A DNA stretch of 64,000 nucleotides from a virus: positions 1 through 64,000 of the IMG/VR virus record IMGVR_UViG_3300032240_000659; one strand, given 5' to 3'. The notes under the pieces are model-generated. The model did no database searches. It was not told the origin of the DNA and was given only the letters and a program-made list of their open reading frames with translations. Position 1 is the stretch's first letter. Every line of letters begins with the position of its first letter. Position numbers and translations under genes: made by a program. Positions 17,891 through 54,254 of the stretch are shown here, in pieces.

Positions 17891-20800
17891 TTATCCTTGT
17901 GCCTCTGTCCACGAAATACGAGCTTTAACCGTTGCAGTGTTTACACTTAAATTAGTTGCAAATACTACAAGCAAATCAGGGCCGTCTGGGTAACCATTAT
18001 TACCGCCTAAAATACTGTTACCTAAATCACGAATAATACTAATATCTTGGTTTGTAATGGCTGCACGACCGTTACCGTCATCAGCATAGAACGAGTACAT
18101 ATTATCGCCGGCTGTTGGTGCAGGGGTCGTACCTTTTACACTATGATCTAAGTATTGACTAATACTACCGTTACCTACTGAGACCCAATTTGATGTTGTT
18201 GTAAACAGTGTGCTTTCACTATTAATTTTAATACTAATGCTTAGTGCGTAACTGGTTACAATACCAACGCTTTTTAATGTAATAGCAGACCTATTGATCA
18301 AATTTCTAATTCCAAATTCTCGGCCAATACCATTATCCACCGTAGGGGCTAATCTAATGCTAATTAATGGAACTGTTGAGCCAGAGCCGATTGTTATGTT
18401 ATTTGTCATTTGGGATGTAAACAAATATGATTTATCTTCATCAAACCTACCATCCATAATAGCCGAAACGCCCCAATGGCTTAATGCAGGGGCACAGTTT
18501 TGATTAAAACTTTGAACTGAATCTCCTACGCTTGCACTAGCATTAGATGATAACCCGTATTCGTTGCGTAGATCAATAGTAAAGTTTGTATTGGCGCCAC
18601 TGATTGTTCCTTTTGTGTAGCGAATTACTTCACTGTTGATAATAGCTCTACCTTTTTTTACAAATTGATCTGCATCAGTAGTGAGCATAGTAAAACTAGT
18701 ACCACTAGTTGACAGCGAGCTAGTTAACACACCTAACTTAGATTTAGTATTAATTTCAAATCTTCCTGGTAAGTTACCAGAGCGCATATATGCTTCTGTA
18801 TTAATGTTATTTTGCGGGGCTTGATGAATATAGATAATGCTACCGTCAAGACTTCTCATACCCCATCGAATACGTCCTGCACCATACCACGAGTAATCAA
18901 GAAATACCATCTGCATTTTAGTTCTATCAAACACAAATCCGCTTGGACCAGTGCCATCAATTTTATCTAAGTTAAAGTTACTTTGTATTACTCGAGTGTC
19001 AACTGTTTTTTGGATTTTTAAGCCGGTTTCTGTGTTTCCTCTGTAATCTGGCTGAACGGCCAACGAGGTATTTGAAAATATATTGGTAACTAGATAACTA
19101 CATCCTTTGATAACAACATAGTTTCCGGCAGCAAGCTGGGTTGCCCATTTAGTATTTGTACCTGTAACTGTTGCTGAGTTATTTGTTACAGCCGCTGTTC
19201 CGCTTAAAATTAATGTAGACGATCTTTTTACTACTGCTAGATCAGTGCCATCGTGCTCAAAGAAAATTCCGTTTTGATCGTCATACAACCCATCACGTAC
19301 TACCGCATCAGTCCATGATACCAGTGTAATTTTTTGCTGGCCGCCTGGAAACAAATCAGTAATACTTGGTGAAACTTTAATAGTAAATGTTTTATCATTA
19401 GTAATACTCTGTACATAATATAAACCGTTATAGTTGAGACCAGTCGATACAGTAAATCCACTTAATAAAATATATGCGCCAACTCGGTATGTATCCGGCT
19501 GAGCAAAACCATTGACCTGATCAGTTGTGATGTTAAGATCAAAATATGGATAACTTGAAGCATTATATACATTGGTCAATACAACATAAGTTGCAACATC
19601 ATACGTTGGAGCAAATAATATACCAGTACTAAATTGAATACCTTTACCAGATTGATAACGGAAGTACTTACGTGTTTGTCGAATAATTTGGCAGTTTGGT
19701 GTTGACGAACCTGGATTAATTTGTACACCACCGCTTTGAAATCTATGAAATCCAATACCTGTTGGACGGACATAAATCTTTGTAGTACCTGTACTAACAG
19801 TGGTGGCACTACCATAATTAGATAAAGCATTTCCGGTATATGTAACAACTGTACTACTTAGAATATTTTTGACTGAAAAAGATCCAATGTATACTTGTGC
19901 AGACTGGCTCGCATCAACCACGTAAATATATTGTCCAGGAAATAGGCCATGATATGTACTAAACGTAATTTGTAAATCTGTAGTGCCTACTACAGTAGTA
20001 ATGCTAGTTAACGGAATCTCGGCACTGGTAAAAAAGCCACCAGTATAAATTGTAGTATAATTTGAAACATAATTTGTTCCAGATACTAATGATACGCTCA
20101 TAGTAGCTACAAACGACAATGAACTTGGGACTGATTTAATTAAATAAGAACCATCTAAATATAAGCTGGCAGTTTCTTTAAGAATAATAGGTTGTCCAAT
20201 GTAAAATGCCGTACTTGGAGTTGTGTTAACTGTTACTGTTACGTCTCGACTTGCGCCAGCTGATGTAATAATTTGATATGCTGAGTTACTGACTGGAAAA
20301 CTACTGTTCTGTGCAACAAATGTTGAGTTCACTCCGTCACCAACTGCCGGTGCATTAACACCATATGTACTACCAGCCGTTGGTATATGTACTTTAATAG
20401 TATTTGAGCCGCTTGTAAACCATACTTCGTAAATATAAGTTACACCAGTTGCACAGCAGTTGTTACCTTCAGCTCGAATAATAAAAGTGCTGCCAACTGT
20501 TCCAGTGTAATATTGGTACATAGTTCTATCACCTGGCATAATCATCAAAGAAGGGAACGGTGGATTTGCACCAGTAAGTCCTGAATATGCGTTTGAACCT
20601 CCGCCAAATGTTATATAACCATTAGATCCTAAATAGACAGTAGAATAATTAACACCTAAAAACGGTACAGTAAACGGTAATGAGATAGGATAGTTAGCAT
20701 CGTCAGCATAACTAGCACCGTAATTTAAAATAAGTGTCAGACCGGTAGTACCGTTGGCTGCGTAGGTAATAGTTGATATAGCAGCCGAAGCACCTCCAGG

Positions 20801-21772
20801 AACCGGCAAAATACTAGTGATCTGGCTGGCGGTAAATGATGGTTCATTTGCCTTACTATAAACTGATGGAATATTATTAACTAGTGACACGGTTTCCCAT
20901 TTAGTACCTTGTAGGCTATATTCAAAGTCAGTATCGATCATAGCTTGAGGCTCTGATACACGTTGTTTTTCTACAGGATCTTGATAGGTAGGATGAGGTT
21001 TAACAAACTCAGTGTCTTTATTAACAAATATCTGTAACTTGTCTTGAGAAGACATTCCAGTTGTATCTGTATACAGTGCATATCGAGTTTGTTGTGTAGG
21101 AAATTGGTAAATGGAATAACCAGCTTTTGTACTGTCAGCAAAATTATATACAATAGTGCTTTTAGTAACGTTTGTGATTAACAACAAATCTTTATAATTA
21201 ATATTTCCGTCAATATAGACATATCCGTATGATCCACTAGCAGTTGTAATTGACGGAGATGTACCTGTATTAATATATGAAGTAAGATTACCGGCCAAGC
21301 CGGTAATTACTGTGCTGGCGCCAGCCTCAGCGGCTGATCCTGATGCATTTTGTGTAACTATTGTTTGATATGCAGGACTAGCGGCAGTACCTGTAAAAAT
21401 ATAATTGTTAATTAAGTCTCTAATATAGTTATGTGTTGAAATTTCAGGACTTCTGTCACCGTCAATTTGGGGGATTCCGTTAGACCAATAAAAACTACCC
21501 ATTTGCACGGTTTCAACATTACCGCCAAATCGTAAATCATTAATGTAAGCATCAATAACATAACCAACATCTCGCTCACATTTAAAACTGTTATAGGTAA
21601 AATTAATAAAAGGAGAAACGTTGTTAGCAACCTGATAAGCAATGTAGGCAGTTGCCATTACTTGTATATATCGTTTGTTATTAGATAGTCGTGTAACAGC
21701 ATTAGGATATGCGTTGTATGTTTGATTATACCCTGGTGTAAATGAGTAATTGTATATCTGTTGTTTTGCCAT
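17891..21772 (-). CDS. Large fibre-like virion protein, paralog of the 969-aa protein at 36527-39436
   Basis: 1293 aa. It shares ordered segments with the 969-aa protein: LLLITNVTKSTIVYNF, DPVEKQRVSEPQAMIDTDFE, YFRYQSGKGIQFSTG, LDYSWYGAGRIRWGMRSLDG, NTEAYMRSGNL, LSHWGVSAIMDGRFDEDKS and RDLGNSILGG. The first 100 residues are unique and helical. Its middle part (about residues 300-700) holds inserted beta modules, some of the shared 'VGQ/PGQ' type. No catalytic motif is visible. I infer a tail fibre or surface appendage. A GCTAAATA octamer overlaps the upstream stop, 24 nt before the ATG. Confidence 0.85.
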   Translation of the reverse strand: MAKQQIYNYSFTPGYNQTYNAYPNAVTRLSNNKRYIQVMATAYIAYQVANNVSPFINFTYNSFKCERDVGYVIDAYINDLRFGGNVETVQMGSFYWSNGIPQIDGDRSPEISTHNYIRDLINNYIFTGTAASPAYQTIVTQNASGSAAEAGASTVITGLAGNLTSYINTGTSPSITTASGSYGYVYIDGNINYKDLLLITNVTKSTIVYNFADSTKAGYSIYQFPTQQTRYALYTDTTGMSSQDKLQIFVNKDTEFVKPHPTYQDPVEKQRVSEPQAMIDTDFEYSLQGTKWETVSLVNNIPSVYSKANEPSFTASQITSILPVPGGASAAISTITYAANGTTGLTLILNYGASYADDANYPISLPFTVPFLGVNYSTVYLGSNGYITFGGGSNAYSGLTGANPPFPSLMIMPGDRTMYQYYTGTVGSTFIIRAEGNNCCATGVTYIYEVWFTSGSNTIKVHIPTAGSTYGVNAPAVGDGVNSTFVAQNSSFPVSNSAYQIITSAGASRDVTVTVNTTPSTAFYIGQPIILKETASLYLDGSYLIKSVPSSLSFVATMSVSLVSGTNYVSNYTTIYTGGFFTSAEIPLTSITTVVGTTDLQITFSTYHGLFPGQYIYVVDASQSAQVYIGSFSVKNILSSTVVTYTGNALSNYGSATTVSTGTTKIYVRPTGIGFHRFQSGGVQINPGSSTPNCQIIRQTRKYFRYQSGKGIQFSTGILFAPTYDVATYVVLTNVYNASSYPYFDLNITTDQVNGFAQPDTYRVGAYILLSGFTVSTGLNYNGLYYVQSITNDKTFTIKVSPSITDLFPGGQQKITLVSWTDAVVRDGLYDDQNGIFFEHDGTDLAVVKRSSTLILSGTAAVTNNSATVTGTNTKWATQLAAGNYVVIKGCSYLVTNIFSNTSLAVQPDYRGNTETGLKIQKTVDTRVIQSNFNLDKIDGTGPSGFVFDRTKMQMVFLDYSWYGAGRIRWGMRSLDGSIIYIHQAPQNNINTEAYMRSGNLPGRFEINTKSKLGVLTSSLSTSGTSFTMLTTDADQFVKKGRAIINSEVIRYTKGTISGANTNFTIDLRNEYGLSSNASASVGDSVQSFNQNCAPALSHWGVSAIMDGRFDEDKSYLFTSQMTNNITIGSGSTVPLISIRLAPTVDNGIGREFGIRNLINRSAITLKSVGIVTSYALSISIKINSESTLFTTTSNWVSVGNGSISQYLDHSVKGTTPAPTAGDNMYSFYADDGNGRAAITNQDISIIRDLGNSILGGNNGYPDGPDLLVVFATNLSVNTATVKARISWTEAQG

Positions 21773-26096: not shown

Positions 26097-26746
26097 AATC
26101 CATATCTCCCTTTTGTTGCAATATAATTTTGTAATATTTCTGCTTGGGTCAGTGCTCGATTATAAATTTGCACTATTGATATTCTTCCGTTAAATGTTTC
26201 ACTGCTTGGGGATACACAGCCAATATATAAATTTCCAGTACCGGGGGCTGAAGGAGCGAATGCAAATGCATTTGATGCTAATAAAGTATTGTTAACATAT
26301 GCTTTAAGTCCGGTACTATCTCCTGTGACAGCGTTATAAGTCCATGTATTTAGGCTAACACTTGAATTAGGAGTAGATATTGTGTTGCCTGACACATAAA
26401 ACCATAAATTGTTGTATTGTTCATGTCGAATTCTATAACCAGAATTATAATTTTTTGAAACAATATTACCTAGTCCGCTAGTATCGACAGGATACGTCCA
26501 GGCTATTATTGTAATTCCATTCGTCAGTGCTAGTACACTAGGATTTCCAAAGTCAATATAACTTGAAATGCCGTTAAATGTCATGTATCCATTAGAGTAT
26601 GACACATTATTCATAGTGCCAACTGCTTGTTTACCGCTTATGTCGTATGCTGTTGTGCCAGACCCGATATAACTTTTAGGGTTGGCTGCATCAAAGTAGA
26701 ACACTAACCCATAAGTTACTGATTGAGCACCGTAGTTGACAGCCAT
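26093..26746 (-). CDS. Single-domain LamG adhesin
   Basis: 217 aa, essentially one LamG domain: LVFYFDAANPKSY at the start, MTFNGISSYIDFGNPS, GITIIAWTYPVD, LNTWTYNAVTGDSTGLKAYV and RISIVQIYNRALTQAEILQN, ending TKGRYGL. Together with the 399-aa gene it forms a tandem pair of related cassettes. Its start overlaps the stop of the 1027-aa fibre gene (TAATG) after a GAGG site, and its own stop overlaps the next start. Stoichiometric coupling to the fibre is likely. Sugar or receptor binding is inferred. Confidence 0.85.
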   Translation of the reverse strand: MAVNYGAQSVTYGLVFYFDAANPKSYIGSGTTAYDISGKQAVGTMNNVSYSNGYMTFNGISSYIDFGNPSVLALTNGITIIAWTYPVDTSGLGNIVSKNYNSGYRIRHEQYNNLWFYVSGNTISTPNSSVSLNTWTYNAVTGDSTGLKAYVNNTLLASNAFAFAPSAPGTGNLYIGCVSPSSETFNGRISIVQIYNRALTQAEILQNYIATKGRYGL

Positions 26747-29829: not shown

Positions 29830-32006
29830 TAGAATGTTACCTCTGTTGTTTCTGCTTTACATACCCATCGTATTGTATTGGCTACTTGTCCGGTTACTGT
29901 AACTGCTAATGCACCGTTAGTTGTATCCGCTGATAGTGCAATAGTCCAAGTACTTGCTCCGGAATCCGCTGCCGTTATGTTGATAATAGCAGTGCCAACA
30001 ATTGACGTAGTTGCATTTGTCAGTGCTTTTTTAACAACACATTCAAATGTCCATGCTTTAGTTGCGCCGGCGGCTGTTACTGTTGCAATCACTGAGCCTT
30101 TAACATAGTATGCACTATTGCTAGGTAATGCTATTTGATTTGAACTGCTGGCTGCACTGTTATCTGATCGTAAAACTGTTGCAGTAGCATCAGTTGTTTG
30201 TCTAGCAAGTATTAGTAGACCACCTTGTGATACTCCGCTTGTAGCAGCGATTGGGGCAAAACATGCCGGAAACGCATGGAATCCCACTACAGCTCGTGTA
30301 TCACCGTATGATCCTCCCATAATTGCACCGTAGGCCATATTATTTTGATGACCTCTTCCGCCAGCAACAGTGCTCCAGTTATATCCTGCATAATTGTCAC
30401 TGCCGCCACTTATAGTTGCATAAGACCCACCTGATACTTGGTTATTATATCCGCCACTAAGTGTTGCATACGATCCACTGTTTGTATTTTTTTGTCCGCC
30501 TCCAGTAAAACTCCAATCGCCGCTGGCTGTGTTTCTATTTGTAGCGGTAACTCTATCACCGCCTCCAACAACTATAGAGTATAAACCAGTAGCTTGATTA
30601 TTTGCGCCGCCACCAATAAATGCACCAGGATAAAATAATGTTGTTGTTCCTCCTGTTACTGGGTTATTGTAACTAATGTTTGCTGCCATAGTTGCAGTAA
30701 TTGTAGTGCTTTGTTTAACAGTTCCTTGTATGCTAATAGTACCAGTTGCACTAGATCCAAAAGATACACTGCCTGCCGATGATCCAGTAACAATGTATGT
30801 TCCGTTGATTGTACCACTGGTTAGTGTTACACCTGCAATAGTAATCCAAGAATCAACAGCGTAAGTACCGCTAGCATGTGTTAATGTATATGTTGTACCG
30901 TTGCCAGAGCCGCCAGTAGTAGCAAATGTACTACCAGCGGCTATATATGTCAATACAGCTTCTTCATTAAAAACAGGTGAGCCGTTATTTGCAACGCTTG
31001 AAAAAATTAATCCTGCTTTAATACTAGCATTGTCTGCACTTAAAGCAATGTTTGCTTTTCCACTTTGACTAAAAAAAGTTATTTGAAACTGAGTGGCGCC
31101 TGCTTGATTTGCATAACCGCCTGCTATCGCACCCCAGTAGCTGGTCTGTCTACCATTTTGACCGCCTAATATTGATGCTGAAGGACCAGAGTTCCAATTT
31201 GCGTCACCGCCAACAATAACACCCCTGTCTGCATTTAGAACATTACTATATCCGCCACCAAGAAACTGATAATTTGGCACATAGCTTGCACCAAGGAAAC
31301 CACCGCCACCGCCACCTACAGAGTTTTGTTGGCCGCCGACAATAGCCGACGAGTTAGAATAAGTTATTGTATTCTGATTGCCGCCGCCTATAAATTGATT
31401 TTTCCAGCCAGTGTTAACACTTTCAATTAGGTTACTAGTACCGGTTACAATTGCATGGGTTTGGCCGTTTTGTACTGTATTGTTTTGTCCTGAACCAATA
31501 AAAGAATAGGTACTATTAGCAACTTGTGTGGCGGCAGATCTAGACATTTGAAAATCTACAGAATAAGTTCCACGCTTGTTACCACCTGCTGCGTTTCCAT
31601 CTGGCACTTGAGCCAGTATCGCGCCCGTACCTTTAACTACTAAAGCAATGTCAATATTTGCATAACCTACGTTAGTAGCCGTTAATGTCGCAACTGGTAT
31701 TACGTTGTTAGGTGATACTGTTGAAATAGTATCAGTAAAATTGGTTAGTCCGCCACCACTTGCTACTACTGTTGCAAACGATAAATTGCCAGCACCGTCT
31801 GTTCTTAAATATTGTCCAACTGTGCCATCACTAGCAGGCCATCGTATTCCGTTCAACGACAGTGTTTTACTAAATGGATTATATGTTAGTGCTGTAGCAG
31901 AAAGAATGCTAGTAGTACGGCCAGCACTAGCTGGCTGCATTGAAAGATACAATGTTGCATTGTCGCTAACTGCTGGAAGTACTTGTAATGAGGTATCTGT
32001 AATCAT
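29829..32006 (-). CDS. Fibre with YadA-like head repeats
   Basis: 725 aa. Residues about 150-290 and 440-570 carry short repeats such as FIGSGQNNTVQNGQTHAIVT, AIVGGQQNSVGG, FLGGGYSNVLNADRGVIVGG and TLSGGYNNQVSGGSYATISG. These resemble the left-handed beta-roll head of trimeric autotransporters (YadA/Hep_Hag). The N-terminal part has the fibre motif FSKTLSLNGIRWPASDGTVG. A C-terminal domain (about 600-725) ends ANTIRWVCKAETTEVTF. Trimeric adhesin is inferred from repeats. The start has no ribosome site; AATAAATA lies six bases upstream. The 1027-aa gene overlaps its stop by one base. Confidence 0.8.
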   Translation of the reverse strand: MITDTSLQVLPAVSDNATLYLSMQPASAGRTTSILSATALTYNPFSKTLSLNGIRWPASDGTVGQYLRTDGAGNLSFATVVASGGGLTNFTDTISTVSPNNVIPVATLTATNVGYANIDIALVVKGTGAILAQVPDGNAAGGNKRGTYSVDFQMSRSAATQVANSTYSFIGSGQNNTVQNGQTHAIVTGTSNLIESVNTGWKNQFIGGGNQNTITYSNSSAIVGGQQNSVGGGGGGFLGASYVPNYQFLGGGYSNVLNADRGVIVGGDANWNSGPSASILGGQNGRQTSYWGAIAGGYANQAGATQFQITFFSQSGKANIALSADNASIKAGLIFSSVANNGSPVFNEEAVLTYIAAGSTFATTGGSGNGTTYTLTHASGTYAVDSWITIAGVTLTSGTINGTYIVTGSSAGSVSFGSSATGTISIQGTVKQSTTITATMAANISYNNPVTGGTTTLFYPGAFIGGGANNQATGLYSIVVGGGDRVTATNRNTASGDWSFTGGGQKNTNSGSYATLSGGYNNQVSGGSYATISGGSDNYAGYNWSTVAGGRGHQNNMAYGAIMGGSYGDTRAVVGFHAFPACFAPIAATSGVSQGGLLILARQTTDATATVLRSDNSAASSSNQIALPSNSAYYVKGSVIATVTAAGATKAWTFECVVKKALTNATTSIVGTAIINITAADSGASTWTIALSADTTNGALAVTVTGQVANTIRWVCKAETTEVTF

Positions 32007-32020: not shown

Positions 32021-35000
32021 TTAAGTACCTAACATGATTTCTGCAGGTTTAAATGGATAACGTTTTACTGGAGGAGTTGCGGCATTAATACCAGTGCTTC
32101 TAATCATCACAGTTGATTGCGGGCTAACCGAGCCTGCAAATTTAATAGTACTGCCACCAGCAATAGTATAAGTTAAACCAGTTGGTGTTCCGCTAGCAGT
32201 TATAATAGGGATAGCGCCTAATGTTGGTGCTAACTGAAACGTTGTTGATCCATTAGTAGCTACAATGTAGTAGGTTGTGCCAGAAACATAGTTTTGAATA
32301 GTACCAGCTGATGGCCAAGAACCGTTACCGTTTGTACCTGTAATAGTCATTGTTTGTCCAACATATAAAGTTGTTGGTGCAGATAGACAGCTAAATTGCC
32401 CGGCTGATCCTGTAATAGCCACTGTGCTAAGATTAGCTGTACTGGTTTGTACTGTATAACCCCTGTAGGCACTAAAGAAGCAACTAGTCCATATTGGATC
32501 GTAATTTACGATAAATGCCGGTTGTACTAATCCATTAACTGTGACCATTAGACTAAATGGGTTTGCTACTGCTACTGGAAGTTGATTAAATGTTAGGGGA
32601 AACGCACTTTTTGAATCGTTTAGAGTAAGTTCATCTAGGTCGTAAGCCGCATAAGTACCGCCAACAATATTGCCGCCAAAATAGGCATTGCTCATTGAAA
32701 CAAAATTGCCTTGAACTACCATAGTGTTATTAACAGTAACTCTGTTGTCTGAATAACCCATGGACATTGCTGTCCCAGTATTGGTTGTAGTGCTGTTAGA
32801 AAAAGTTTGCGCAGAGTCAAGAATGTTACTAGCGTAGATTATTCCACCATACTGTCCGGCTCGAATATACGCCGAAGTTCCTGCTGAGCTATTGCCAAAA
32901 TTAATTGTACTATTGGTTGGGATTGATGTAGATGATAAGTTACCTAAATTTAGTGTAATACTTCCCTGAGATCCGCTTGCTGGGCCTAGTGTCATAGTTG
33001 CACCTGCAACTGGAATTCTTACTAGGCCGCTGCCATTAGGTGTAATATCAATGTTACCGTTAGCACCTGCATTAATTACAAAACTTCCACTAGTTGAGCC
33101 GTTGTTAGTATTTAAAGTTAAGTTAGCAGTAACTGAACCGGTAGTAAGCGTACCGGAACTAGTAATGTCACCCATGTTTACCACTGAAGTTGGTGCACCA
33201 ACATTAACTGTTGTAGCATTGGCTGTAAACAAGTTTGCTGTAGTAGCAGGTGTGCTTAGGTTTAAAATAGTACTAGCACTGGCTGTATCAATACTTAAAC
33301 GCTCTTGTGCAGTTTGTAGTGTTGAACCTGTAGTTAATGTTGTACCAGTATAAAATTTAATAGCACCGCCAGTACCAGTACCAGTTGATAGACCACCTTG
33401 TATTGACAATGTGCCAGCACTGATATCAGTACCAGACATGTTGGTCATTCTAATAGTTCTTGCAATGGCAGTAGTGTAAGTGTCACCAACACCCAAAATT
33501 AAACTAGATGCAGATATTCTAAATGTTTCTAAATTATTTCCTGAACCAAATGCTACGCCATAGGTGCTGCCTGGTGGATTAAATTCAATATAACCTTGTG
33601 GTGTTACATCGATACGCTGTTGAATACGTGTACTATCACCTGTCCAGTCAGCACCGTCAGTGTGACGATGGTGATAGGTATGTAATAGTGTTCCATTACC
33701 ATTATTACCAGATAGCTGTGTCCACTCTGTACCTTTTCTAAATGTATGTGTGCCAGCTGGAAGTGTACCTGTTAAATCTATTGGGGTACTTTGGGCGTTA
33801 GCGTTATACGACGAAGTATGTAATTTAACTGTTGTTGTATCAACAGTTTGAACATAGTAGAAATATTGCCAGCCTTGCGGTAAATTAAATGATCCGGCAA
33901 GTCCGCCAATTGCGCCGCCAGACCCTGGGATATAAAACACCATGTCGCCAGTATTCAAATTATGAACTGCACTAAATGTAATAGTATCTAGTGTAGCGTC
34001 CATTGCACTAACTGTACTTAGGTTAAAACTGGAATTTACACCTCTGCTATTGTTAACATGTAGTAGTGCATTTGGCTGTGTTTGATTAATACCAACGTAT
34101 CCCATTGGTGTAACTGTTGCACGAATTTGGCCGCTGCCTAGGTCTGTGCCGTTAGTTCCGCTATCACCTGAGTATATGTCTAAAATTTGCCCAATATTTG
34201 TGACCTGTCGAGAACCAATACCAGTGTTGTATCTATTATTAGTTGCATCAGGGAAAGCAATAGTAGGAACAGTTCCGCCAGCGGAAACAATTGTGACTTT
34301 ACTAACAGGGCTTGTTGTGTAAAATCCAATCTTACCAGTACCATTAGGCACCACAGTAATGTTTCCGTTAGTACCTTGGTTAAGAACAATGCTACCTGCG
34401 TTAGTACCACTGTTAGTATTAATTGTTAAATTACCAGTGCCGTTAGTTGTTAAAGTTGTAGCAGTATTACTTACACCTAATTGTGTTGTGCTAGTAATTA
34501 GGTCAACTTTACCAGTACCGTTGGTTGTAATATCAATATTACCATTAGTACCGTTGTTGAGAACAATGCTACCTGCATTGGTACCATTGTTAGTATTAAT
34601 TGTTAAGTTAGCAGTGCCATATGTTGTAATGGTAGATGCTGTATTTTGCTTGCCTAATTGTACAGTGCTAGCTGACAAACCAATAGTGCCAGTAGCGGTG
34701 GTAATAATGCTTAACCCTTCACCGGATATATTACTTAATATACCTAATCCAGTTAAGCCAGTTCCGCCCCAAGTGCTTGCTCCGCGATTATAAGAAATAT
34801 ATGCTGAATAGCCGCTTGAGGTATTTTGAAAAGTAATTAATGAAGTAGATGGTGCAGTTGCAGTAGCACTGCTACCTAAATTGATAACTGCTTGGTTTGT
34901 TCCAGTTCCAGATGGACTTGTTGATCCAATAGTTAATGTTCTATTAACATCTCCTGAACCTGTTAAATTAAGATTAATATTGCTATCCCAAGATGTTGTT

Positions 35001-36527: not shown

Positions 36528-39436
36528 TAAGCCTGTGCTTCTGTCCAGCTTAAACGACTGTTAATTGTGTTTGTTGCTTGGTTAGTAATGTTAGTACAGC
36601 ATACAGTAATAACGTCTGGACCATCTGGGTAAATGTTAGCAGGAGTTGTACTACCGTTTGCTGTAGTACCACCACCTAAAATACTATTACCAATGTCTCG
36701 AACAATTGACAAGTCTTGTGTAACTGCGCCAGAATTACTAGTAAAGAATCCAAAAATAGCCTCACCACCAGACACTGTCTGGCCGCTGGTATGGAAAATG
36801 TATTGCGCTAGACTTGATCCGCCCACGTTAGCCCATGTTCCGCCACTGATACGAGCGTTTAAGAAAATTTCAATCTTAAACGCAGTACCGCTGGTAAAAA
36901 CGTCCATCTGACGTAAGGTTAACTGCATACGGTTGATAATTTCACGCTGTCCAATCAATCCTGATAGACCATTATCAATACTTGGTGCAATACGGATACT
37001 TAAAATAGGTTGACGAGTATTTTGAGCCAAGTTAATTAGCGCTGTATTGTTACCAGCGTTGAACACTAGAGATTTATCATCGTCATAACGTCCGTCCATG
37101 ATAACTGAACTACCCCAGTGGCTTAACTGTCCAGCACTTTGTGGACTGTACAATTCTGCTTTGATAGGAGCAGTAGCACTATAGGTAAATGTCTGTGCTG
37201 ATCCTTGTCCGCCTGTTTGAGCACGAGAACCAATAGTCAGTGTGGTTAGTGTTTTAGAAGTATATGTAATATATTCAATTACAGCGCCTGTGGCTGCTGA
37301 TGCTGTTAATACTACTGTACCGCTTGCTGGCCAGCCAGTTGTATCATTTACACTGATTGTTGCACCAGTTGTAGCCGCACTGGACAAGGTTGCTGTCAAG
37401 TAAGTGTAATAAGGCAAGTGGTTACATTCGTAACGTCCTACCAAGTTACCTGAACGCATGTATGCTTCAGTGTTGACGTTATTGTTTGGAATTCTATGGC
37501 AGTAAATAACTTCGCCGCGGTTGTTCTTGAATCCAAAACGGATAGCACCAGCACCGTACCATGTGTAGTCCATGTAGAACATTTGCATCTTACTTAGGTC
37601 AAGTGTCATTCTGCTGTGTCCGGTACCGTCCATCTTGTCAATATTCCAAGTGTTAGTTGCACCAACTAGGCTCAGCCCGGGATAACGAGTATCAATGGTC
37701 TTACTGATAACACAGTTTACAGTTGAAACACCTTTGTATTCTGGATAAACATACATTTGTGTATCGCTAGTAATCTGTTGTACAAAGTAAGTCATACCTC
37801 GAAGAACAATAGAATCGCCTGGCTTTAACTGGCTTGAAAACTTGGTATTTGTACCTACCACACTTTGACTTCCGTTGGTTGCCTGAGCAAAGCCGCTGAT
37901 CTGAGCAGTACTTGAACGTTTAACTGCATAAATTGTCTGCCCATCATATTCAAAAAAGAATCCGTTTTGACTATCAAACATACCAAGTCTACTGGTAGCA
38001 CCGTACCAGCTGTATGGGTTAGCGTTTACGTTACCCGTAGCAGGGCTGGCACTTGGTGTGCTACCAGCAGTATAGGTAAATGTTGTTGGTGTTGCGGCAG
38101 TTACAATAGTAAAGTTACCGTTGTAGGCTGTTTCATTAGCACCTGATATGGTAACAACTGCACCTACTAACTGACCGTGTGGATATTTTGTAGTTACCGT
38201 TACAGTTGTACCACTACTAGTAATTGTATCTGGGTTTAAACTTGGTTTTAAAATACTACCAGTTGAGAATTGAATAGCTTTACCAGACTGATAACGGAAT
38301 TGGCGTCGTGTCTGACGAATAATTTGATATCCGTGATATGGGCTAACGTTACCAAACTGTACACCACCGTCAAATGGTCTGTGATTAATATAACCTAATG
38401 GACGTGGGTATAACGTTGCTGTTGCACCAGCTGCCGCTGTAATAGTACCAGTAGCTGTACAGGCAAATGTAAATGTTGAGTTACTTGGAGTTGTAGCAAC
38501 TTTCCAGCTAGAGTTCAGTGTGCCAGTGGCACCAGTAGTACCAACTATATAAAAAGCGTCACCTACACGTAGTCCGTGATCGCCAGTTGTGGTAACTGTA
38601 CCAACTGAACCAGATAAACTGATCGCGGCGCCAGCACTGGCACTAACTGGAATGCCAGCACCTGTAAAGAAATAGGCAATAAAAACATAAGTTTTGTTAG
38701 TATCAAACAAGCTGGCTGCTGGAACATTGCCTGCTGGGATCGTATAGGTAAAGTTAGTGTTACCGCTAACCGATTCAACTAACCACCATCCGCCTGCGTT
38801 AGCATCGTCTAGTGTACCTTGAATAAAGATTGGAGAGCCTACAGTAATACCTACAGTGTTGTTAATAGCAACTGTAACAACTTGTCCAGTAGCTGTAACG
38901 TTAGTAATTTGATAGCTACCACTACTTGCTGTTCCACCGTTGCCTACGAACGCAGGAGTGCTAGACAAATTACTTAAACCCGTTGTGAAATCATAAAATG
39001 CACTAGGACGATTATGGCATAAGATTAAACTTTCCCACTTAGTTGGTTGAACACCATATTCAAAGTCAGTGTCAATTAATGCTTGTGGTGTTGAGACACG
39101 CAATTTATCAACTGGGTCGCGCATTGTTTCTGCGGGAACAATTTCTGTATAAGTTTCTTCAACTATAATACTTAATACATCAGTTGAATTCATTGATGTT
39201 GTATTATAGTTAAGTGTAATACTAGTAGTTTCTACAGGAGTACCCGTAGTACTAACTAAACTGTTAGTGTAAGCAGTCGCAGTAAGCGAAGTATCACTAA
39301 AATTATAAATTACCGTATTTGTAGTTACGTTGGTAATTAAAAGAAGCTGTTCTCTTCTTATGTTTTTTCCGTTGACTACAACTTGTCGTGAAGACGGGGT
39401 AAATGTGTAGCTTTCTAAGATTGCATGTTTTGCCAT
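36527..39436 (-). CDS. Fibre-like virion protein, paralog of the 1293-aa protein
   Basis: 969 aa. It opens MAKHAILESYTFTPSSRQVV and shares the ordered core with the 1293-aa protein: LLLITNVTTNTVIYNF, DPVDKLRVSTPQALIDTDFE, FRYQSGKAIQFSTGS, FEYDGQTIYAVKRSST, MDYTWYGAGAIRFGFKNNRG, NTEAYMRSGNLVGRYECNHL, LSHWGSSVIMDGRYDDDKSL and VRDIGNSILGG. Between core blocks sit four or so beta modules (for example VGSPIFIQGTLDDA and VGDAFYIVGTTGATG). An AAAGGAAA ribosome site precedes the ATG. The paralogs flank a block of fibres 18-36 kb, which suggests duplication followed by insertion of fibre genes. Role unproven; virion appendage is likely. Confidence 0.85.
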   Translation of the reverse strand: MAKHAILESYTFTPSSRQVVVNGKNIRREQLLLITNVTTNTVIYNFSDTSLTATAYTNSLVSTTGTPVETTSITLNYNTTSMNSTDVLSIIVEETYTEIVPAETMRDPVDKLRVSTPQALIDTDFEYGVQPTKWESLILCHNRPSAFYDFTTGLSNLSSTPAFVGNGGTASSGSYQITNVTATGQVVTVAINNTVGITVGSPIFIQGTLDDANAGGWWLVESVSGNTNFTYTIPAGNVPAASLFDTNKTYVFIAYFFTGAGIPVSASAGAAISLSGSVGTVTTTGDHGLRVGDAFYIVGTTGATGTLNSSWKVATTPSNSTFTFACTATGTITAAAGATATLYPRPLGYINHRPFDGGVQFGNVSPYHGYQIIRQTRRQFRYQSGKAIQFSTGSILKPSLNPDTITSSGTTVTVTTKYPHGQLVGAVVTISGANETAYNGNFTIVTAATPTTFTYTAGSTPSASPATGNVNANPYSWYGATSRLGMFDSQNGFFFEYDGQTIYAVKRSSTAQISGFAQATNGSQSVVGTNTKFSSQLKPGDSIVLRGMTYFVQQITSDTQMYVYPEYKGVSTVNCVISKTIDTRYPGLSLVGATNTWNIDKMDGTGHSRMTLDLSKMQMFYMDYTWYGAGAIRFGFKNNRGEVIYCHRIPNNNVNTEAYMRSGNLVGRYECNHLPYYTYLTATLSSAATTGATISVNDTTGWPASGTVVLTASAATGAVIEYITYTSKTLTTLTIGSRAQTGGQGSAQTFTYSATAPIKAELYSPQSAGQLSHWGSSVIMDGRYDDDKSLVFNAGNNTALINLAQNTRQPILSIRIAPSIDNGLSGLIGQREIINRMQLTLRQMDVFTSGTAFKIEIFLNARISGGTWANVGGSSLAQYIFHTSGQTVSGGEAIFGFFTSNSGAVTQDLSIVRDIGNSILGGGTTANGSTTPANIYPDGPDVITVCCTNITNQATNTINSRLSWTEAQA

Positions 39437-39449: not shown

Positions 39450-40658
39450 TTAAGATCTCAACATTATATTTAGTGCAGAAAAGGGCACTTGGGTATAATT
39501 AAACGTTGGTGCTGGGTCCTGGTTCGTTCTAATTTTTCCGTAGAAAGACATTCCTCTCCTTGGAGCCGTTGCAAACGTAATCGCAGAACCAGCGGTTACT
39601 GTTGCGCCAGGAGTTATCGTCCCGGTTGTTGTGGTTAATGCAAATACTGGACTTGAAGCAGTTGCATTAGCATAAGTATTGGTAATTTGAATACTGGTTG
39701 TTGAGTTTATTTTACCAACATAGTAAGTTGTTCCTGTAGTGTAAGTGCTAATAGAACCTGCTGTAAATGTGCCAGAAATTGTTATAGGCTGTCCTATATA
39801 ATACAATCCTGCACTAACAGTTAAGGTTCCTACTGCATCTGCTATTGCTACAGAAGAAATTGCCAATTGAGTTATTGTATATCCTGCGCTAAACACAGGA
39901 ATATCTGGTAGGTTAAAATAGTCTGCTATGATTTTTGCTGGACTAATTTGTATGCCTCCAATTAATATTTCTACTTTGTTTGGATGATTGGGACTGATTG
40001 GTGTTCCATTATTATAAGTTAATCCAAATGTTGTTGTGATATTATCAAACTTAGCACTAATGTTGTCTAAATCATAGGTGTAACCAATTGGTTCACCGGT
40101 AGGATATGTGTAGTTTGTTGCAGAAACACTAGTAGCTGATAGTGTAGGAACAACAACCTTACCAGTGCCGTTTGGTGTTAGTGAAATATTGCCGTTTGTA
40201 CCTGCGGTAATAACAATACTACCCGTTGTAACACCGTTGTTCGTGTTTAATGTTAAGTTGCTAGTTAAGCTACCAGTGGTTACAATACCTGCGCTTGATT
40301 GATCGCCAATTAAAACTGCACCTGTACCATTAGGCGTAAGTGCAATGTTAGCATTTGCACCTTGGTTAATTGTAATTGTACCACTACTTGTTCCAGTGTT
40401 AGTTGACAATAACAAGTTTGCCGCAGTAGCTGTGGTAACTAATGGAGTACGAATGTCTGTTGTAAAACTTGGACTTGTATTGAATACTAGGTTACCTGTA
40501 CCAGTTTCGTCGTTGATAATGGCTGCTAGTTGAGCACTAGTTGATGTAGCAAGTTTGCTTAATTGTATACCGGCAGCGGCTGCAATGTCAGCATCTACAA
40601 TGCTACCATCTAAAATTAGCGCACTATTAACATAGCCGGGGGTTACTGATAATCCCAT
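39450..40658 (-). CDS. Short fibre with two PNGTG repeats and a fibre cap
   Basis: 402 aa. The N-terminus MGLSVTPGYVNSALILDGSI with DADIAAAAGIQLSKL is a known phage-fibre start pattern. SFTTDIRTPLVTTA and two NTN-G-T...TPNGTG units follow. The C-terminal cap has YDLDNISAKFDNITTTFGLT, VEILIGGIQISPAKIIADY and FSALNIMLRS, matching the cap of the 1487-aa fibre. Like that cap it is interrupted by one 'YYIGQPITISGTFTAG' module. It is preceded by AAGGAG and ends 14 nt before the 969-aa gene, so these genes share a message. Confidence 0.83.
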   Translation of the reverse strand: MGLSVTPGYVNSALILDGSIVDADIAAAAGIQLSKLATSTSAQLAAIINDETGTGNLVFNTSPSFTTDIRTPLVTTATAANLLLSTNTGTSSGTITINQGANANIALTPNGTGAVLIGDQSSAGIVTTGSLTSNLTLNTNNGVTTGSIVITAGTNGNISLTPNGTGKVVVPTLSATSVSATNYTYPTGEPIGYTYDLDNISAKFDNITTTFGLTYNNGTPISPNHPNKVEILIGGIQISPAKIIADYFNLPDIPVFSAGYTITQLAISSVAIADAVGTLTVSAGLYYIGQPITISGTFTAGSISTYTTGTTYYVGKINSTTSIQITNTYANATASSPVFALTTTTGTITPGATVTAGSAITFATAPRRGMSFYGKIRTNQDPAPTFNYTQVPFSALNIMLRS

Positions 40659-40667: not shown

Positions 40668-43600
40668 TTATTTGTACTGTGCATCAAACCAACAGTTTGC
40701 CGCACCAATTGTCTTGGTAGGACCCGTTGTTGAATTGCACACTACAATTCCTGTTGAAAAATATCTGCCATAGACACCAAAATCAAAACTGTAATTACTC
40801 AACGCTGGCACATAAAACATTACTGCTGGTACACTAGTGTCAGCTGGTAATGACGTTGCGTTATGAATTTGAATAAACTGCGGCGATGCTAGACTGTTAT
40901 ATCCGCTTAACATGTAAAGTGTTCCAGCTGTTGCTTTTACTACTAAGTTAGTTGCATATGCACTAGTTGTTGCATTTGTACCAGAATATGTTCCAGTAGC
41001 ATCTGGTGTTGCTTTTGTTTGCACAACATCGTCAGTTGCTACTGTTACTCGTAATGTGCCTGCTGAACGTACACCTGTATTAGTTGCAATTGCATTACCA
41101 TTAAACTGCGTTAAACTAGTAACAGTTGCTAGTGTTTGGCTGGCAGCAATGTTTACATCACCAATGATAACACCACTGTTTGCTGACAATTTACCAATTG
41201 CATTTGTACCTGCAGGTAATGGGCTATTAGGGCTTAATCCAACTACTAAACTTGTGTCAGTCGCAATGGCCGCAGTACTTGCTGCCTTCATTGAAATAGC
41301 AGTGCCGTTAAATTGTGTTAAACTTGTAACTGTTGCTAGTGTCTGTGAGGCAGCAATATTTACATCGCCAATAATAACGCCGCTGTTTGCTGACAATTTA
41401 CCAATGGCATTTGTACCAGCTGGTAGTGGACTATTAGGACTTAATCCTACAACTAGACTTGTATCGCCAGCAGCGGCTGCTGTGCTAGCCGCTTTCATTG
41501 TAATTGCAGTGCCGTTGAATTGTGTTAAGCTGGTGACAGTCGCTAGTGTTTGACTTGCGGCAATGCTAACTGTTGCATTTAAGTTTGCCGCTGTAGATTG
41601 TGCTACTGTTACTGAATTGTTTGGACTTACTGCAACAACTAACGCAGGATCGCCAACAACTGCCGCAGTACTAGCGGCTTTGATCGCCACAGAGTTAGTA
41701 CCATCACTTGGTCTGGTTAACCAAGGAGTTGTATTAGCTGTATTACCAGGTTGAACTGTCCAAGTACCACTTTGGCTTGCAGGTACTACGTCATCAGTAG
41801 CAATAGTAACACGCTGGGTTCCTGCGGTACGAACACCGCTACCCATGGCAATTACTTGCCCGTTCATTTGTGTTAAACTTGTTACAGTTGATACTGTGCT
41901 AACTGTTCCTAATGTTTGAGCGGCAGCTATTTCAATTGCGCCAATTGTAACACCACTGTTTGCAGACAACTTACCAATAGCGTTAGTACCTGCTGGCAAT
42001 GCAGAGTTAATTGCGCCAATGTTTACACGACCACTTGTATCGGTATTTAATGCTCTTAAGTTTGCACCATCCCAACCGCCAATTTGTTGTACACTAACTG
42101 GCTGTGATGTAGTACCGTTTGGTGATATAGATAAGTTTACCTCGCCGTCAGTTTGTGATGACATTGAGATAAATGTTACTGTACCGCTACCATAAGCAGA
42201 CATTCTCAAACGTGTTTGATATGCACCAGGCGGAAGAATAATAGTTCTAACCGCACCTACAACTAGTTGAGCATTTGTTATGCTATTTGAAATAACTCCA
42301 GCAACATCTTTCATGTATGCTGTATTCCATGTACTGCCGTCAATTGTTACTTCGGCAACTACTGTTATACCTGTTGGCACGCTGATTGCATTTACTACAA
42401 CACTTGTACCTTTTTGGCTGAATACATTCCACGGGCCCATTACTTGATTTAGCGCACCTAGTGCTCCAAAATTTGTTTGAACTCCGGATAAATTTACAGA
42501 ACCAATATTGTTTTGTCCAAACGGTAGTGGGCTATTAGGGCTTAGAGCAACTACTAGTGACGGATCGCCGGTTGCGGCAGCAGTACTAGTTGCCTTAACT
42601 GCTACAGTATTAGTACCGTCCCATAACTTTGCAGGAGTATTAGGACTTAATGAAACAACTAGTGCAGTATCTGCGGCTGCGGCTACTGTGCTTGCTGCCT
42701 TGACAGTTGCAGTATTTGTACCGTCAGTTACTCTGTGATAGATACCACGTGCGGCTGCATCGCCCATTGGCATTGTATTGGTGCCGTCACTAATTTTAGT
42801 TGCTGAGTTTGCGCCAGCAAAAGAAACTACCAATGCTGGGTCAGTGGCTGCGGCTGATGTGCTTGATGCCTTAACTGCTACGGTGGTTGTACCGTCCCAT
42901 AATTTTGCAGGAGTGTTAGGACTTAGAGCAACTACTAAACTATTATCGCCAACTACAGCCGCTGTACTTGCACTTTTCATTGCGATAGCAGTACCGTTAA
43001 ACTGTGTTAGACTTGTTAATGTTGAAACTGTGCCAATATTACCAATTGAGTTTGTACCTGTAGGCAGTGCAGTGTTAGGACTTAGAGCAACCACTAAACT
43101 TGTATCAGTAGCTGTGGCAGCAGTACTTGCAGCCTTCATTGAAATAGCAGTACCGTTAAACTGAGTTACACTTGTAACAGTGCCTAATGTTTGGCCGGCA
43201 GTAATACTAATTGGTACTATATCATCTGTAGCAATTGTAACACGTTGCGTACCGGCAGTTCTTACACCGGTACCCATAGCAATAGTTTGTCCTGCCATCA
43301 TTGACAAGTTACTAATGACGTCTGGTGTATAAGTTGAATAAGTTACGCCGCTTGGAGTACCTGCTGTGGTTGTAATAGCAGTACCGTCTAAGTTTACTAA
43401 GGTAAATGTAGTACTTCCGTTGGTTACACTAATACGATAAGTGCCGTTAGTAATTGATCCAGTGCCGCCGTTTGTTCCAGCAATAACAACAGTTTGTCCA
43501 ACGTATAAAATAGTAGCACCAACAGTAAGCTGGCCACCAGTTCCTATTGCGGTAAGAGCACCGGTTGTTGTTGGTTGGGCTGAGTTAACACTGATCGGAC

Positions 43601-49529: not shown

Positions 49530-51092
49530 TTATCTGTCGAAGCCATGTAAAACGTTGACTGTTTTACCTAGTGGTACTGGTTCTGTAAACTGTAAGTAAT
49601 AACTATTATTAGAAACAGTGTTTGTAGCGTCTACTAGTGTATATGTCATTCCTTGTGGAATGATTTGACTTGTTGTTCCTAGTGCAAGAGTTGCGCTAGT
49701 TAATGCTCCGCTGATACTGTCAGTTGTGTAACTGACAACGGTTGAGTATGTTGTCAATGTTAATCCAGTAATTGATCCGCCAGTGGCTGTCACTGCGGGG
49801 CCGCCAATAGAAGTTGACAACTGGAATGTTGTAGTACCGTTTGTTGAAATAATATAATATGTTGTAGGATTAGTATATCCAGTAATGCTACCGGCGCCGC
49901 CGGCCGTTCCACTAATTTGAATTTTCTGATTAACTGCTAAGGTATTGGCTGTACCTAATGTAAATGTATTACTACTAGTTGTAATAGTTCCAGAAATAGT
50001 TGTACTAGTTGGAATATATGTAGAATACGCTCCGCTAACTTTAGAACTGGCTGTAACAGTACCTGATTGATTTGATAATACTAGTGAATAAGATACCGAT
50101 GTTGCACTAGGAGCTGGGCTTGCTAATACACTAAATGACCCGTTAAAATTTGTAATACCTGTAACAGTAATACTTTGACCAGAAGCAAACGGAACACTAC
50201 CTAGACTAGTAAAGGTTAATGTTGCTACGTTTCCAGATACTGCCGCAGTTAATACAGTTAATGTTGATGATGTTGATACTGTTGCTGTAGTAATGTCTAC
50301 AGACGGATATGCAATAGTACCACTGGCGCTAGTTGCTACCAATGCTGTTGTAGAAGGAATAGCACTATACACACCGTTTGAACTTAGTGTATAAGTTCCT
50401 GTTCCGCCACTGCCGACAGTAATGGTTCCATAAATTGTACCAGTTTGTGCGTTGGCAATTTGTTGTCCCACTGCCAGTTGTGAAGGACTGCCTGAATTAA
50501 TTGATCCTACTGTAAGTGTAACAGATGATCCATTACTTCCGCTAGCCCCAATACTGCCAGTTATCCAAATACTAAAATAAATTGTCTTACCTGCAACTGC
50601 AATAGCATTACTACTAGTTGCTGTATAGGTCTCCCCAGCAATAGTAGGGTTTTGTACTACAAGATAGTTTGATACAGCTAATTGAATAACGTTTTCAACA
50701 ATGACTATTAAATTTTTAGCCATCTGTGTCATATCCCAAGTAACACCGCTTTGTGCTGTAGTTGCCGGTGCTGGATTTAATGGGCCAAAATATATAGTTA
50801 AGCTATCGCCTGCTCCTAAATTTTGTAATGTAATTAGGCCTGGTTCTTTGTAACGAATTGCACGCCAGCTTGCACTACTACCTTGATACACTTCTACTTC
50901 TTGGGTAGTTGTATTGTAACGAATCATGCCAGTTGACGGTGTTCCTGGTTGTTGTGCAGTAGTACCGTTAGGTAAAACTAAACTACCTGCACCAATAGGA
51001 CTAACATAGACATTAGTTCGTGAATCATCAGAATACAAAGTGGTATTATTTGCAGTTCTGCGATCTAAAGTTTGACGTTTAATAAATCTCAT
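49530..51092 (-). CDS. Structural protein with inserted beta modules
   Basis: 520 aa. The N-terminus MRFIKRQTLDRRTANNTTLY leads to PTGMIRYNTTTQEVEVYQGS-type fibre sequence (GMIRYNTTTQEVEVYQGS). About residues 85-150 start a cap-like beta domain (LIVIVENVIQLAVSNYLVVQ), which appears to resume only at the C-terminus (YYLQFTEPVPLGKTVNVLHG). The intervening ~330 residues are tandem beta modules, including FASGQSITVTGITNFNG and LAVNQKIQISGTAGGAG. Start and the preceding stop overlap (TAATG). It ends 126 bases before the 1567-aa gene. Appendage or head-fibre role is inferred. Confidence 0.82.
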   Translation of the reverse strand: MRFIKRQTLDRRTANNTTLYSDDSRTNVYVSPIGAGSLVLPNGTTAQQPGTPSTGMIRYNTTTQEVEVYQGSSASWRAIRYKEPGLITLQNLGAGDSLTIYFGPLNPAPATTAQSGVTWDMTQMAKNLIVIVENVIQLAVSNYLVVQNPTIAGETYTATSSNAIAVAGKTIYFSIWITGSIGASGSNGSSVTLTVGSINSGSPSQLAVGQQIANAQTGTIYGTITVGSGGTGTYTLSSNGVYSAIPSTTALVATSASGTIAYPSVDITTATVSTSSTLTVLTAAVSGNVATLTFTSLGSVPFASGQSITVTGITNFNGSFSVLASPAPSATSVSYSLVLSNQSGTVTASSKVSGAYSTYIPTSTTISGTITTSSNTFTLGTANTLAVNQKIQISGTAGGAGSITGYTNPTTYYIISTNGTTTFQLSTSIGGPAVTATGGSITGLTLTTYSTVVSYTTDSISGALTSATLALGTTSQIIPQGMTYTLVDATNTVSNNSYYLQFTEPVPLGKTVNVLHGFDR

Positions 51093-52496: not shown

Positions 52497-54254
52497 TTAA
52501 ACGTTATCGATTTTAACTGAAACGTTTAGCACTGCTGAGCCAAATGTCCAGTTAACTGTTGCGCCATCTGCAAACTGTGTACCAGTATTGCGTGTTACAC
52601 GGCAACGACGGTTAGTAATCTTGCTGACCCAATACGAACCACCAGCAGAGTCAACAGCGTTAATAGCCATTGTTCCACCAACTGTTGGGAAAGTTGTTAC
52701 CAGTTTAGCGTAGAAAACACCATCAGCATTTTCAACACGGAAACGTTGTGTGTTTTCTTGTTTGATAATGTCAGTGTCTTGACGAGCAACACCACCAGTT
52801 GTAGACAGTGCTACTGCTTGCATTGCGGCATAGTTACCAGTATAACCAGTTGTGACCTGTGCGGCAAATGTCATACTTGCGGCGGCACCTTGGTTGCTGT
52901 TGATTGTAACAGCTACGTTACCACTTACTACTGTGGTTGCTGTCGATGTTGCTGAAGTAACTGCTGTAGCATTACCACCTGCTGAGCCGCTTAGAACAAT
53001 TTCAGTTGCTCCGTTAACTGCAATGATGTAATATGTGCCAGCTGTTAAACTACCACCAGTACCAGTTGTAACTACTTTTAATCCTGGGACTAATTGGTCT
53101 GTTGAACTAACAGTTGCTTTGTATAAGTTAATTGTTAGACCAACGATATCACCACTTGCTGTACCGTTTGCTACTGCTGTACCGTCAATATTGGTCAATG
53201 TAAATGTACTTGTACCGTTAGTGGTTTTAACAAGATAACTCTTACCAGTTGAGTAACCAGTAATTGTAGTACCAGTGTTAGTACCAGTTAATGTCAATAC
53301 TTGACCGACATAGAATGTACCAGCACTCTGTGGAGTAGCTAACAAATAACTACCAGTAAGACTTGTTGAACTAAAACCAGAACTGGTAAATGCACTGATA
53401 GCTGTTAGTGTTGTACTTGTGATACTTGGAGTTACTGGCACTGTGTTGATGTAACCGTTACCAGTGTTAGTGTATGTGACACCGTTAACACCAAATGTTG
53501 CTGGAGTCAATGTATGACCAGTACCTGAAGTACCTGTCGGAGTTTGAGCAGAAGCTAAACCACTTGTAACACCTGATTGTTGATATGTACCACCACTTGC
53601 AACAGCAACGCTGGCTAATGTACCTGCAACTGTACCAATTGTAACTGTACCGTTACTAATAGCTGTTGAACCACCAGTGAATGTAATTGCTGTTCCAGCA
53701 AGTGCGTTAGCATAGCTAGAAGCCAATGTCACTGTTGTCGAACTTGAAGTTGTAGCGGCAACATAATATGTTGTACTAGCGGCAAGGCCTGAAGTTGTTG
53801 TAACTGAAGCACCAGTGATAAAACTTGTACCTTGAATATAACTTCCGCTTGTAACTGTTACTGCTGTACCATTAGTGTTAGTAATTGTGTTACCAGAAAT
53901 AGTAGACAATGTTGGTGTCCATGTAGATGTTACACCGCCATATGTAACTGACAAAACGTCAGTTGCCAAATATGCTTTAGTTGCTGAACCACTAACAGTA
54001 GCAGTTAAAATACTAAATGTTGGAGTACCAACTGCTGTTACACCACCTTCACTAGCCAATGCTGGAGCTGGAAATGTGAATGATGTTGCGGCAGCTTGAG
54101 CTTGAGTAAATGAACCAGCTGTGATTGAACCAATACCTAGAGCTTTTAAACCACCTAGGTCATAGTCTGTTGGCAATAAACTTGTATTACCGTATAGACC
54201 TGTGGCACCGGTATTTCTCTTACCAAAATATTTTTTATTTAAAGGACGTCCCAT
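52497..54254 (-). CDS. Structural protein downstream of the major capsid gene
   Basis: 585 aa. The N-terminus MGRPLNKKYFGKRNTGATGL is basic. The C-terminal 100 residues (IIKQENTQRFRVENADGVFY, CRVTRNTGTQFADGA) form a conserved-looking end that I associate with a structural protein following gp23 in aquatic T4-like phages. Between them, about residues 60-480, lies a long Ser/Thr/Gly-rich region with several shared modules (FYVGQVLTLTGTNTG, LVPGLKVVTTGTGG). Late octamer GCTAAATA and AAGGAG site upstream. A head decoration role is suggested by the neighbour, not proven. Confidence 0.82.
   Translation of the reverse strand: MGRPLNKKYFGKRNTGATGLYGNTSLLPTDYDLGGLKALGIGSITAGSFTQAQAAATSFTFPAPALASEGGVTAVGTPTFSILTATVSGSATKAYLATDVLSVTYGGVTSTWTPTLSTISGNTITNTNGTAVTVTSGSYIQGTSFITGASVTTTSGLAASTTYYVAATTSSSTTVTLASSYANALAGTAITFTGGSTAISNGTVTIGTVAGTLASVAVASGGTYQQSGVTSGLASAQTPTGTSGTGHTLTPATFGVNGVTYTNTGNGYINTVPVTPSITSTTLTAISAFTSSGFSSTSLTGSYLLATPQSAGTFYVGQVLTLTGTNTGTTITGYSTGKSYLVKTTNGTSTFTLTNIDGTAVANGTASGDIVGLTINLYKATVSSTDQLVPGLKVVTTGTGGSLTAGTYYIIAVNGATEIVLSGSAGGNATAVTSATSTATTVVSGNVAVTINSNQGAAASMTFAAQVTTGYTGNYAAMQAVALSTTGGVARQDTDIIKQENTQRFRVENADGVFYAKLVTTFPTVGGTMAINAVDSAGGSYWVSKITNRRCRVTRNTGTQFADGATVNWTFGSAVLNVSVKIDNV

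What the first reader, a model, noticed from the sequence alone, without database searches (positions are those of the whole stretch)
17891..54254. One beta module shuffled through most appendage proteins
A roughly 70-110-residue unit with '(L/Y)YVGQ.(M/V/I)(T/V)I(T/A/S)GT', 'TYYI...NG(S/T)TTF.L' and 'G.P.G.TY' occurs in the proteins at 32021, 36527, 39450, 40668, 49530 and 52497, with looser versions at 17891 and 44700. Copies differ strongly in DNA but keep the protein pattern. The same unit in capsid-linked and fibre proteins suggests a mobile, Ig-like surface cassette with its own selection, of a type I cannot name.
Basis: partly seen in the sequence, partly recalled or inferred. Interest (0 to 1): 0.62.

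Follow-up and report, generated by a model that had tools for sequence, protein, structure and literature searches.

The report
Shuffled small beta-barrel in phage virions
A roughly 90-residue beta-barrel, related in fold to the sugar-binding barrel of phage endosialidases and absent from the family libraries searched, recurs in many surface proteins of this T4-like phage and of hundreds of uncultured phages, where it has been cleanly gained and lost as a building block.

Summary
The repeat is real, but not in all the proteins named. A profile finds six copies of the ~90-aa module (type A) in five ORFs: 32021, 39450, 40668, 49530 and 52497 (two copies). ORFs 36527 and 17891 carry a shorter relative (type B). 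ORF 44700 is not supported. At the conserved residues the copies share only about a quarter to a half of their codons, so they are old and kept by selection on the protein.

IMG/VR holds hundreds of further copies, in 37 clusters of unrelated host sequence: tail fibres, pectate-lyase spikes, podovirus needle/stabilisation proteins. The closest relative of ORF 49530 lacks exactly 258 bp, the module. Clean empty sites also exist for 32021 and many other loci.

AlphaFold gives confident all-beta domains. Type B matches the beta-barrel of phage endosialidases; both types also match E1 FCCH and F1/V-ATPase N-terminal barrels. So it is not Ig-like. Type A is not in Pfam or PHROGs.

No target-site repeat was seen where the junction was inspected, and copies mostly follow their host-protein family, so this is domain shuffling by recombination, not a self-mobile element. 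Most likely role (inferred): an accessory glycan-contacting or spacer domain on adhesins.

The parts
32150..32434 (-). type A module, ORF 32021-36484, aa 1351-1445, inside the C-terminal host domain
   Evidence: 91.7 bits; 5.9e-30; a relative in L147 has this host domain without the module
39579..39863 (-). type A module, ORF 39450-40658, aa 266-360, in the matching C-terminal domain
   Evidence: 50.2 bits; 1.7e-17; 32021 and 39450 cluster as host sequences
43317..43559 (-). type A module, ORF 40668-43721, aa 55-135
   Evidence: 65.8 bits; 7.7e-23; homologue L145 carries modules at other positions
49731..50000 (-). type A module, ORF 49530-51092, aa 365-454; AlphaFold mean pLDDT 89.6
   Evidence: 87.1 bits; model
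49734..49991 (-). 258-bp stretch exactly missing from the closest relative of ORF 49530 (L174): empty site
53106..53378 (-). type A module, first copy, ORF 52497-54254, aa 293-383
   Evidence: 48.8 bits; 1.7e-18
52905..53114 (-). type A module, second, degenerate copy, ORF 52497-54254, aa 381-450
   Evidence: 29.8 bits; 3.9e-4
38021..38227 (-). type B barrel, ORF 36527-39436, around aa 405-460; AlphaFold mean pLDDT 88.6
   Evidence: 1.2e-18; model; Foldseek to endosialidases
38411..38632 (-). type B barrel, ORF 36527-39436, around aa 272-330
   Evidence: 4.7e-17
38711..38908 (-). type B barrel, ORF 36527-39436, around aa 180-235
   Evidence: 6.4e-15
50028..50249 (-). type B barrel, ORF 49530-51092, directly before its type A module
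   Evidence: 7.5e-14
19772..20008 (-). type B barrel, ORF 17891-21772
   Evidence: 2.0e-12
20063..20254 (-). type B barrel, ORF 17891-21772
   Evidence: 3.8e-6
19367..19528 (-). type B barrel, ORF 17891-21772, weak
   Evidence: 1.3e-6
30702..30923 (-). type B barrel, ORF 29829-32006
   Evidence: 9.3e-9

Best explanation
The unit is a small, independently folding beta-barrel of the endosialidase-barrel / E1-FCCH-like fold. Type A (~90 aa) is a subfamily that was not found in the Pfam or PHROGs libraries; type B (~60 aa) is a shorter relation. It sits in loops or linkers of tail-fibre, baseplate and other virion proteins and has been gained, lost, tandemly duplicated and moved between sites and proteins by recombination. 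Shown by computation: the repeat, the fold prediction, the presence/absence at exact sites, and the many unrelated hosts. Inferred: it is displayed on the virion exterior and acts as an accessory adhesion domain that makes weak, repeated contacts with surface glycans, as the beta-barrel of the K1F endosialidase contacts polysialic acid, with spacing or stiffening of the fibres as a by-product.
For: Profile links with decoys. 75 + 80 viral loci from two scans, some contigs found twice, and proteins with up to 10 copies. 116 non-redundant ORFs fall into 37 clusters of unrelated host sequence. Host families include tail fibre (phrog_9851), pectate-lyase spike / pre-neck appendage protein (PF12708, phrog_4775) and stabilisation/needle proteins (phrog_3287). 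Exact empty sites: 258 bp in L174, L147, L053/L052 and L086/L089, and the Planktothrix phage needle protein. Models: A pLDDT 89.6, B 88.6. B to endosialidases 4hiz (TM 0.63) and K1F 1v0e (TM 0.68), E1 FCCH, F1 barrels and the P22 I-domain; A to V-ATPase barrels, 4hiz and Uba1. Pfam on B members: End_beta_barrel 6.9e-5, E1_FCCH 2.1e-4. The K1F beta-barrel is one of three polysialic-acid binding sites and a host-discrimination hotspot (PMC12632334).
Against: PDB fold matches of type A are weak (best E 0.03, TM about 0.4-0.5). The A-B link is remote. No ligand-binding residues were identified. Loops are about as conserved as strands (mean entropy 1.77 against 1.54 bits) and the best-conserved columns are glycines, aromatics and hydrophobics, which fits a structural role as well as a binding role. 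No virion localisation data.
Confidence: 0.6

Rival explanations
1. Purely structural spacer: the barrel lengthens, stiffens or stabilises fibres and decoration proteins (as the P22 coat I-domain does inside its coat protein) and binds nothing.
For: The conserved columns look like core and turn residues; no hypervariable loops. Tandem arrays of up to 10 copies. Matches to coat I-domains 6mnt/8skg (E 0.0017 and 0.039) and P22 2m5s.
Against: Concentration in fibres and spikes, and a relation to a sugar-contacting barrel. Closely related phages can lose it entirely.
Confidence: 0.3
2. A self-mobile or selfish DNA cassette, intein- or transposon-like, that inserts itself into virion genes.
For: Clean presence/absence and very similar modules (82-89% aa) between unrelated flanks.
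Against: No target-site duplication or terminal repeat visible at the one DNA junction inspected. The most similar modules between unrelated flanks are only 68-76% identical in DNA in the five pairs checked. Labels follow host families on the tree. The module is retained in the protein, not spliced.
Confidence: 0.03
3. Convergence: Ser/Thr/Gly-rich low-complexity beta sequence that only looks related.
For: Composition is biased; BLAST filters appear to mask the modules.
Against: Shuffled and reversed decoys score at most 10 bits against 30-105. Invariant and near-invariant columns. Confident fold with sharp conservation boundaries.
Confidence: 0.04

Closest known systems
End_beta_barrel (PF12195), beta-barrel domain of phage endosialidases (K1F EndoNF, phi92)
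   Same: Predicted fold, phage adhesin context, sequence link to type B (E 6.9e-5; PDB 4hiz E 0.011, Foldseek TM 0.63-0.68)
   Different: Type A has longer loops and a distinct conserved signature and no significant Pfam match; here it is an inserted or tandem module in many non-enzymatic virion proteins
E1_FCCH (PF16190) and F1/V-ATPase N-terminal beta-barrels
   Same: Small-barrel topology (Foldseek), one type B member matches E1_FCCH at 2.1e-4
   Different: Cellular enzymes; the family is not detected in this genome at E <= 10
P22/CUS-3 coat protein insertion (I-) domain
   Same: Small beta domain inserted in a virion protein; profile A hits 6mnt at E 0.0017
   Different: Single vertically inherited domain of one coat family (recalled); not shuffled among tail and fibre proteins
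Ig-like domains of tailed-phage structural proteins
   Same: Works like them: an optional beta module scattered over virion proteins
   Different: Different predicted fold and no Ig family match to the module
Domain mosaicism of phage receptor-binding proteins (PMC10684548)
   Same: General process of ongoing shuffling in tail fibres, spikes and baseplate proteins
   Different: In the passages read this barrel is not named; here exact empty sites are shown

Membership tests
End_beta_barrel (PF12195) | Match above the Pfam gathering score (35 bits) | tested here: not met
   Best type B member E 6.9e-5; the first member (36527) 14.7 bits; type A members none at E <= 0.1
End_beta_barrel (PF12195) | Endosialidase barrel fold | tested here: met
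   Type B model: TM 0.63-0.68 to 4hiz and 1v0e at the top of the list; type A weaker, TM 0.40-0.42
End_beta_barrel (PF12195) | Located in an endosialidase beta-propeller enzyme | tested here: not met
   No sialidase/propeller match at the cut-off in any window protein scanned with Pfam
End_beta_barrel (PF12195) | Sugar (polysialic acid) contact | not testable with these tools
   Needs binding assays; known for K1F from PMC12632334
E1_FCCH (PF16190) | Match to the family model | tested here: inconclusive
   One of 40 type B members at 2.1e-4; none in this genome at E <= 10
Immunoglobulin-like domain | Ig family match or Ig fold among the best structural hits | tested here: not met
   No Pfam Ig family at the cut-off for the module; top PDB hits are barrels
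Self-mobile DNA element | Target-site duplication, terminal repeats or linked recombinase | tested here: inconclusive
   None seen by eye at the one DNA junction inspected, in 49530 against L174; linked recombinases were not searched for

The most novel reading that the evidence does not exclude
Type A is an undescribed, environmentally widespread adhesion domain that aquatic phages trade as a standard part across T4-like, podovirus-like and other tail and neck proteins, giving them a common glycan-contact surface independent of the specific receptor-binding tip.
Probability: 0.3. Interest if true: 0.65.

Novelty: new variant of a known kind. Interest (0 to 1): 0.45.

Why it matters
It gives a usable profile, with window coordinates, for a domain that Pfam and PHROGs appear to miss and that occurs in hundreds of phage appendage proteins. 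It links it to a fold with a known sugar-binding example, and offers natural with/without pairs (49530 against L174) in which the effect of one module on adsorption can be tested. BLAST returned nothing for the modules, apparently because its low-complexity filter hides them, which may explain why they have been overlooked.

Tried and rejected
Pfam E1_FCCH in the own genome: nothing at E <= 10. Three tblastn searches of single modules in 50,697 phage records gave no match at E 1 to 10, probably masking, so not taken as absence. The first bacterial/archaeal genome scan found nothing; the second found one contig in an archaeal MAG. A first A-B profile comparison gave 96.5%, but the B set contained type A members and one permuted control scored 99.6%; it was repeated with a cleaned set and 60 permutations. 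The 44700 copy was rejected. Ig-like fold and self-mobile element were rejected as above. 'Gained in this phage' was rejected for 49530: L175 and the host relatives L098 and L130 also carry a type A module, at the matching place in L175, so L174 more likely lost it.

Full report
Setting. The window is half of a 128,134-base uncultured virus record. It is a T4-like myovirus: major head protein at 54410, portal at 58600, terminase at 2967, tail sheath at 9024 and tail sheath stabiliser gp15 at 15455. The nearest annotated matches of its appendage proteins are in Synechococcus and Prochlorococcus phages and the Methylophilales phage Melnitz, at low coverage. The finding covers a block of minus-strand virion and appendage genes.

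Observation. Six hand-cut copies gave a profile that recovers 52497 (two copies), 49530, 32021, 39450 and 40668 with 68-105 bits per domain. Those scores include the training copies, so the profile was widened with viral relatives and checked against 777 shuffled and reversed decoys: copies score 30-92 bits, the best decoy 10.2. A search of the whole record finds exactly the six copies. The consensus is [81 protein letters not shown]. Copies within the genome are 26-47% identical in protein and 44-56% in codon-aligned DNA, and use the same codon at only 22-56% of conserved residues: old copies under protein-level selection, not recent duplications.

Looser versions. 36527 and 17891 are not found by profile A. 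They carry a shorter unit (type B: G..I.V.G....YNG...V....TTFTY) three times each, also once in 49530 and once in 29829. With all type A members removed from the B set, hhalign links A and B with probability 77%, P 2.1e-5, against at most 4% in 60 column-permuted controls; the tool alignments give 86%. 44700 is not found by A, B or a third loose profile.

Fold. AlphaFold2 gives confident all-beta domains for A (pLDDT 89.6, pTM 0.78) and an almost all-beta domain for B (88.6, 0.75). For B the best solved matches are the beta-barrels of phi92 (TM 0.63) and K1F (0.68) endosialidases, then E1 FCCH, F1/V-ATPase N-terminal barrels and the P22 coat I-domain. For A the matches are weaker (best E 0.03): V-ATPase barrels, phi92 endosialidase, Uba1 and a tail-tube protein; by sequence profile, a coat insertion domain (6mnt, E 0.0017). 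In Pfam, B members touch End_beta_barrel (five members, best 6.9e-5) and E1_FCCH (one, 2.1e-4), while A has no credible family. In the viral structure library the best A matches are a pectate-lyase spike-like protein (52% identity, TM 0.83) and other proteins of uncultured phages. The two types therefore share a small-barrel fold; Ig-like is not supported.

Spread. Two scans of IMG/VR gave 75 and 80 loci, with some contigs in both; a profile finds over 300 copies on them, up to 10 per protein. Masking the modules, 116 non-redundant ORFs fall into 37 clusters of unrelated host sequence. Hosts include tail fibre proteins (phrog_9851), a pectate-lyase spike (PF12708, phrog_4775) and podovirus stabilisation/needle proteins (phrog_3287). 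Type A was not found in the isolate regions checked of Melnitz, S-PM2 and P-RSM1, or of Pag-Yong1, DSL-LC04 and HTVC023P. This is not proof of absence in isolates, because the BLAST searches of single modules appear to have been masked.

Insertion and loss. In ORF 49530 the closest relative (L174, 68% DNA identity over the aligned part) lacks exactly 258 bp, window 49734-49991, with good alignment on both sides. A more distant relative, L175, has the module at the same place, so L174 probably lost it. The C-terminal domain of 32021 without its module aligns without a gap to L147 (E 6e-7). The 52497 family carries modules at different places in different relatives (L184 against the window), and a shorter relative in L175 has none. 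Over all loci, 89 of 183 sites (redundant count) have a relative with the site empty. The isolate needle protein of Planktothrix phage Pag-Yong1 lacks the module that its IMG/VR homologue carries.

Mode of movement. Many module pairs are 82-89% identical in protein between unrelated flanks, but only 68-76% in DNA in the five pairs checked. On a poorly resolved module tree, host-cluster labels need 50 changes (minimum 34, shuffled mean 86), and labels by genome 124 (shuffled mean 133). Modules thus mostly follow their host-protein family, with some moves between families and little sign of homogenisation inside a genome. No target-site duplication was seen at the one junction inspected. This fits domain shuffling by recombination, the known mode for receptor-binding proteins (PMC10684548).

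Function (inferred). The K1F endosialidase barrel is one of three polysialic-acid binding sites, and its loops are a host-discrimination hotspot (PMC12632334). By analogy the module is most likely an accessory glycan-contact domain on adhesins. The conservation pattern (loops 1.77, strands 1.54 bits mean entropy; no hypervariable loops; sharp rise at the domain edge) does not look like diversifying recognition and leaves a purely structural role open.

Verdict. A real, widespread, shuffled module; a subfamily not found in Pfam or PHROGs of a known small-barrel fold; not Ig-like and not self-mobile. New variant of a known kind.

Noticed in passing
26746-29829, 32021-36484, 39450-40658 (minus strand): A second shared repeat of about 30-40 residues, 'NTNSGTNSGSIVINQGVNGNISLTPNGTG', recurs many times in three neighbouring proteins; read by eye from the translations.
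   Followed up: no
40668-43721: Roughly 70-residue tandem repeat ('[20 protein letters not shown]...[24 protein letters not shown]') fills much of the protein; L145 has the same repeat.
   Followed up: partly
44700-49403, 22732-24900, 24897-26096: Laminin_G_3 lectin-like domains in a baseplate-wedge-like protein and two other virion-region proteins, with a putative Ig domain (He_PIG) in 22732.
   Followed up: partly
17891-21772 and 36527-39436: Two proteins of the same PHROG (phrog_5838, virion structural protein), each with three type B barrels: paralogues flanking the variable block.
   Followed up: partly
16933-17382 (+): NUDIX hydrolase gene next to the tail sheath stabiliser gp15 gene.
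   Followed up: no
L186:4432-6855: A type A and a type B module in a 10-kb contig filed under an archaeal MAG; possibly a phage contig binned with it.
   Followed up: partly
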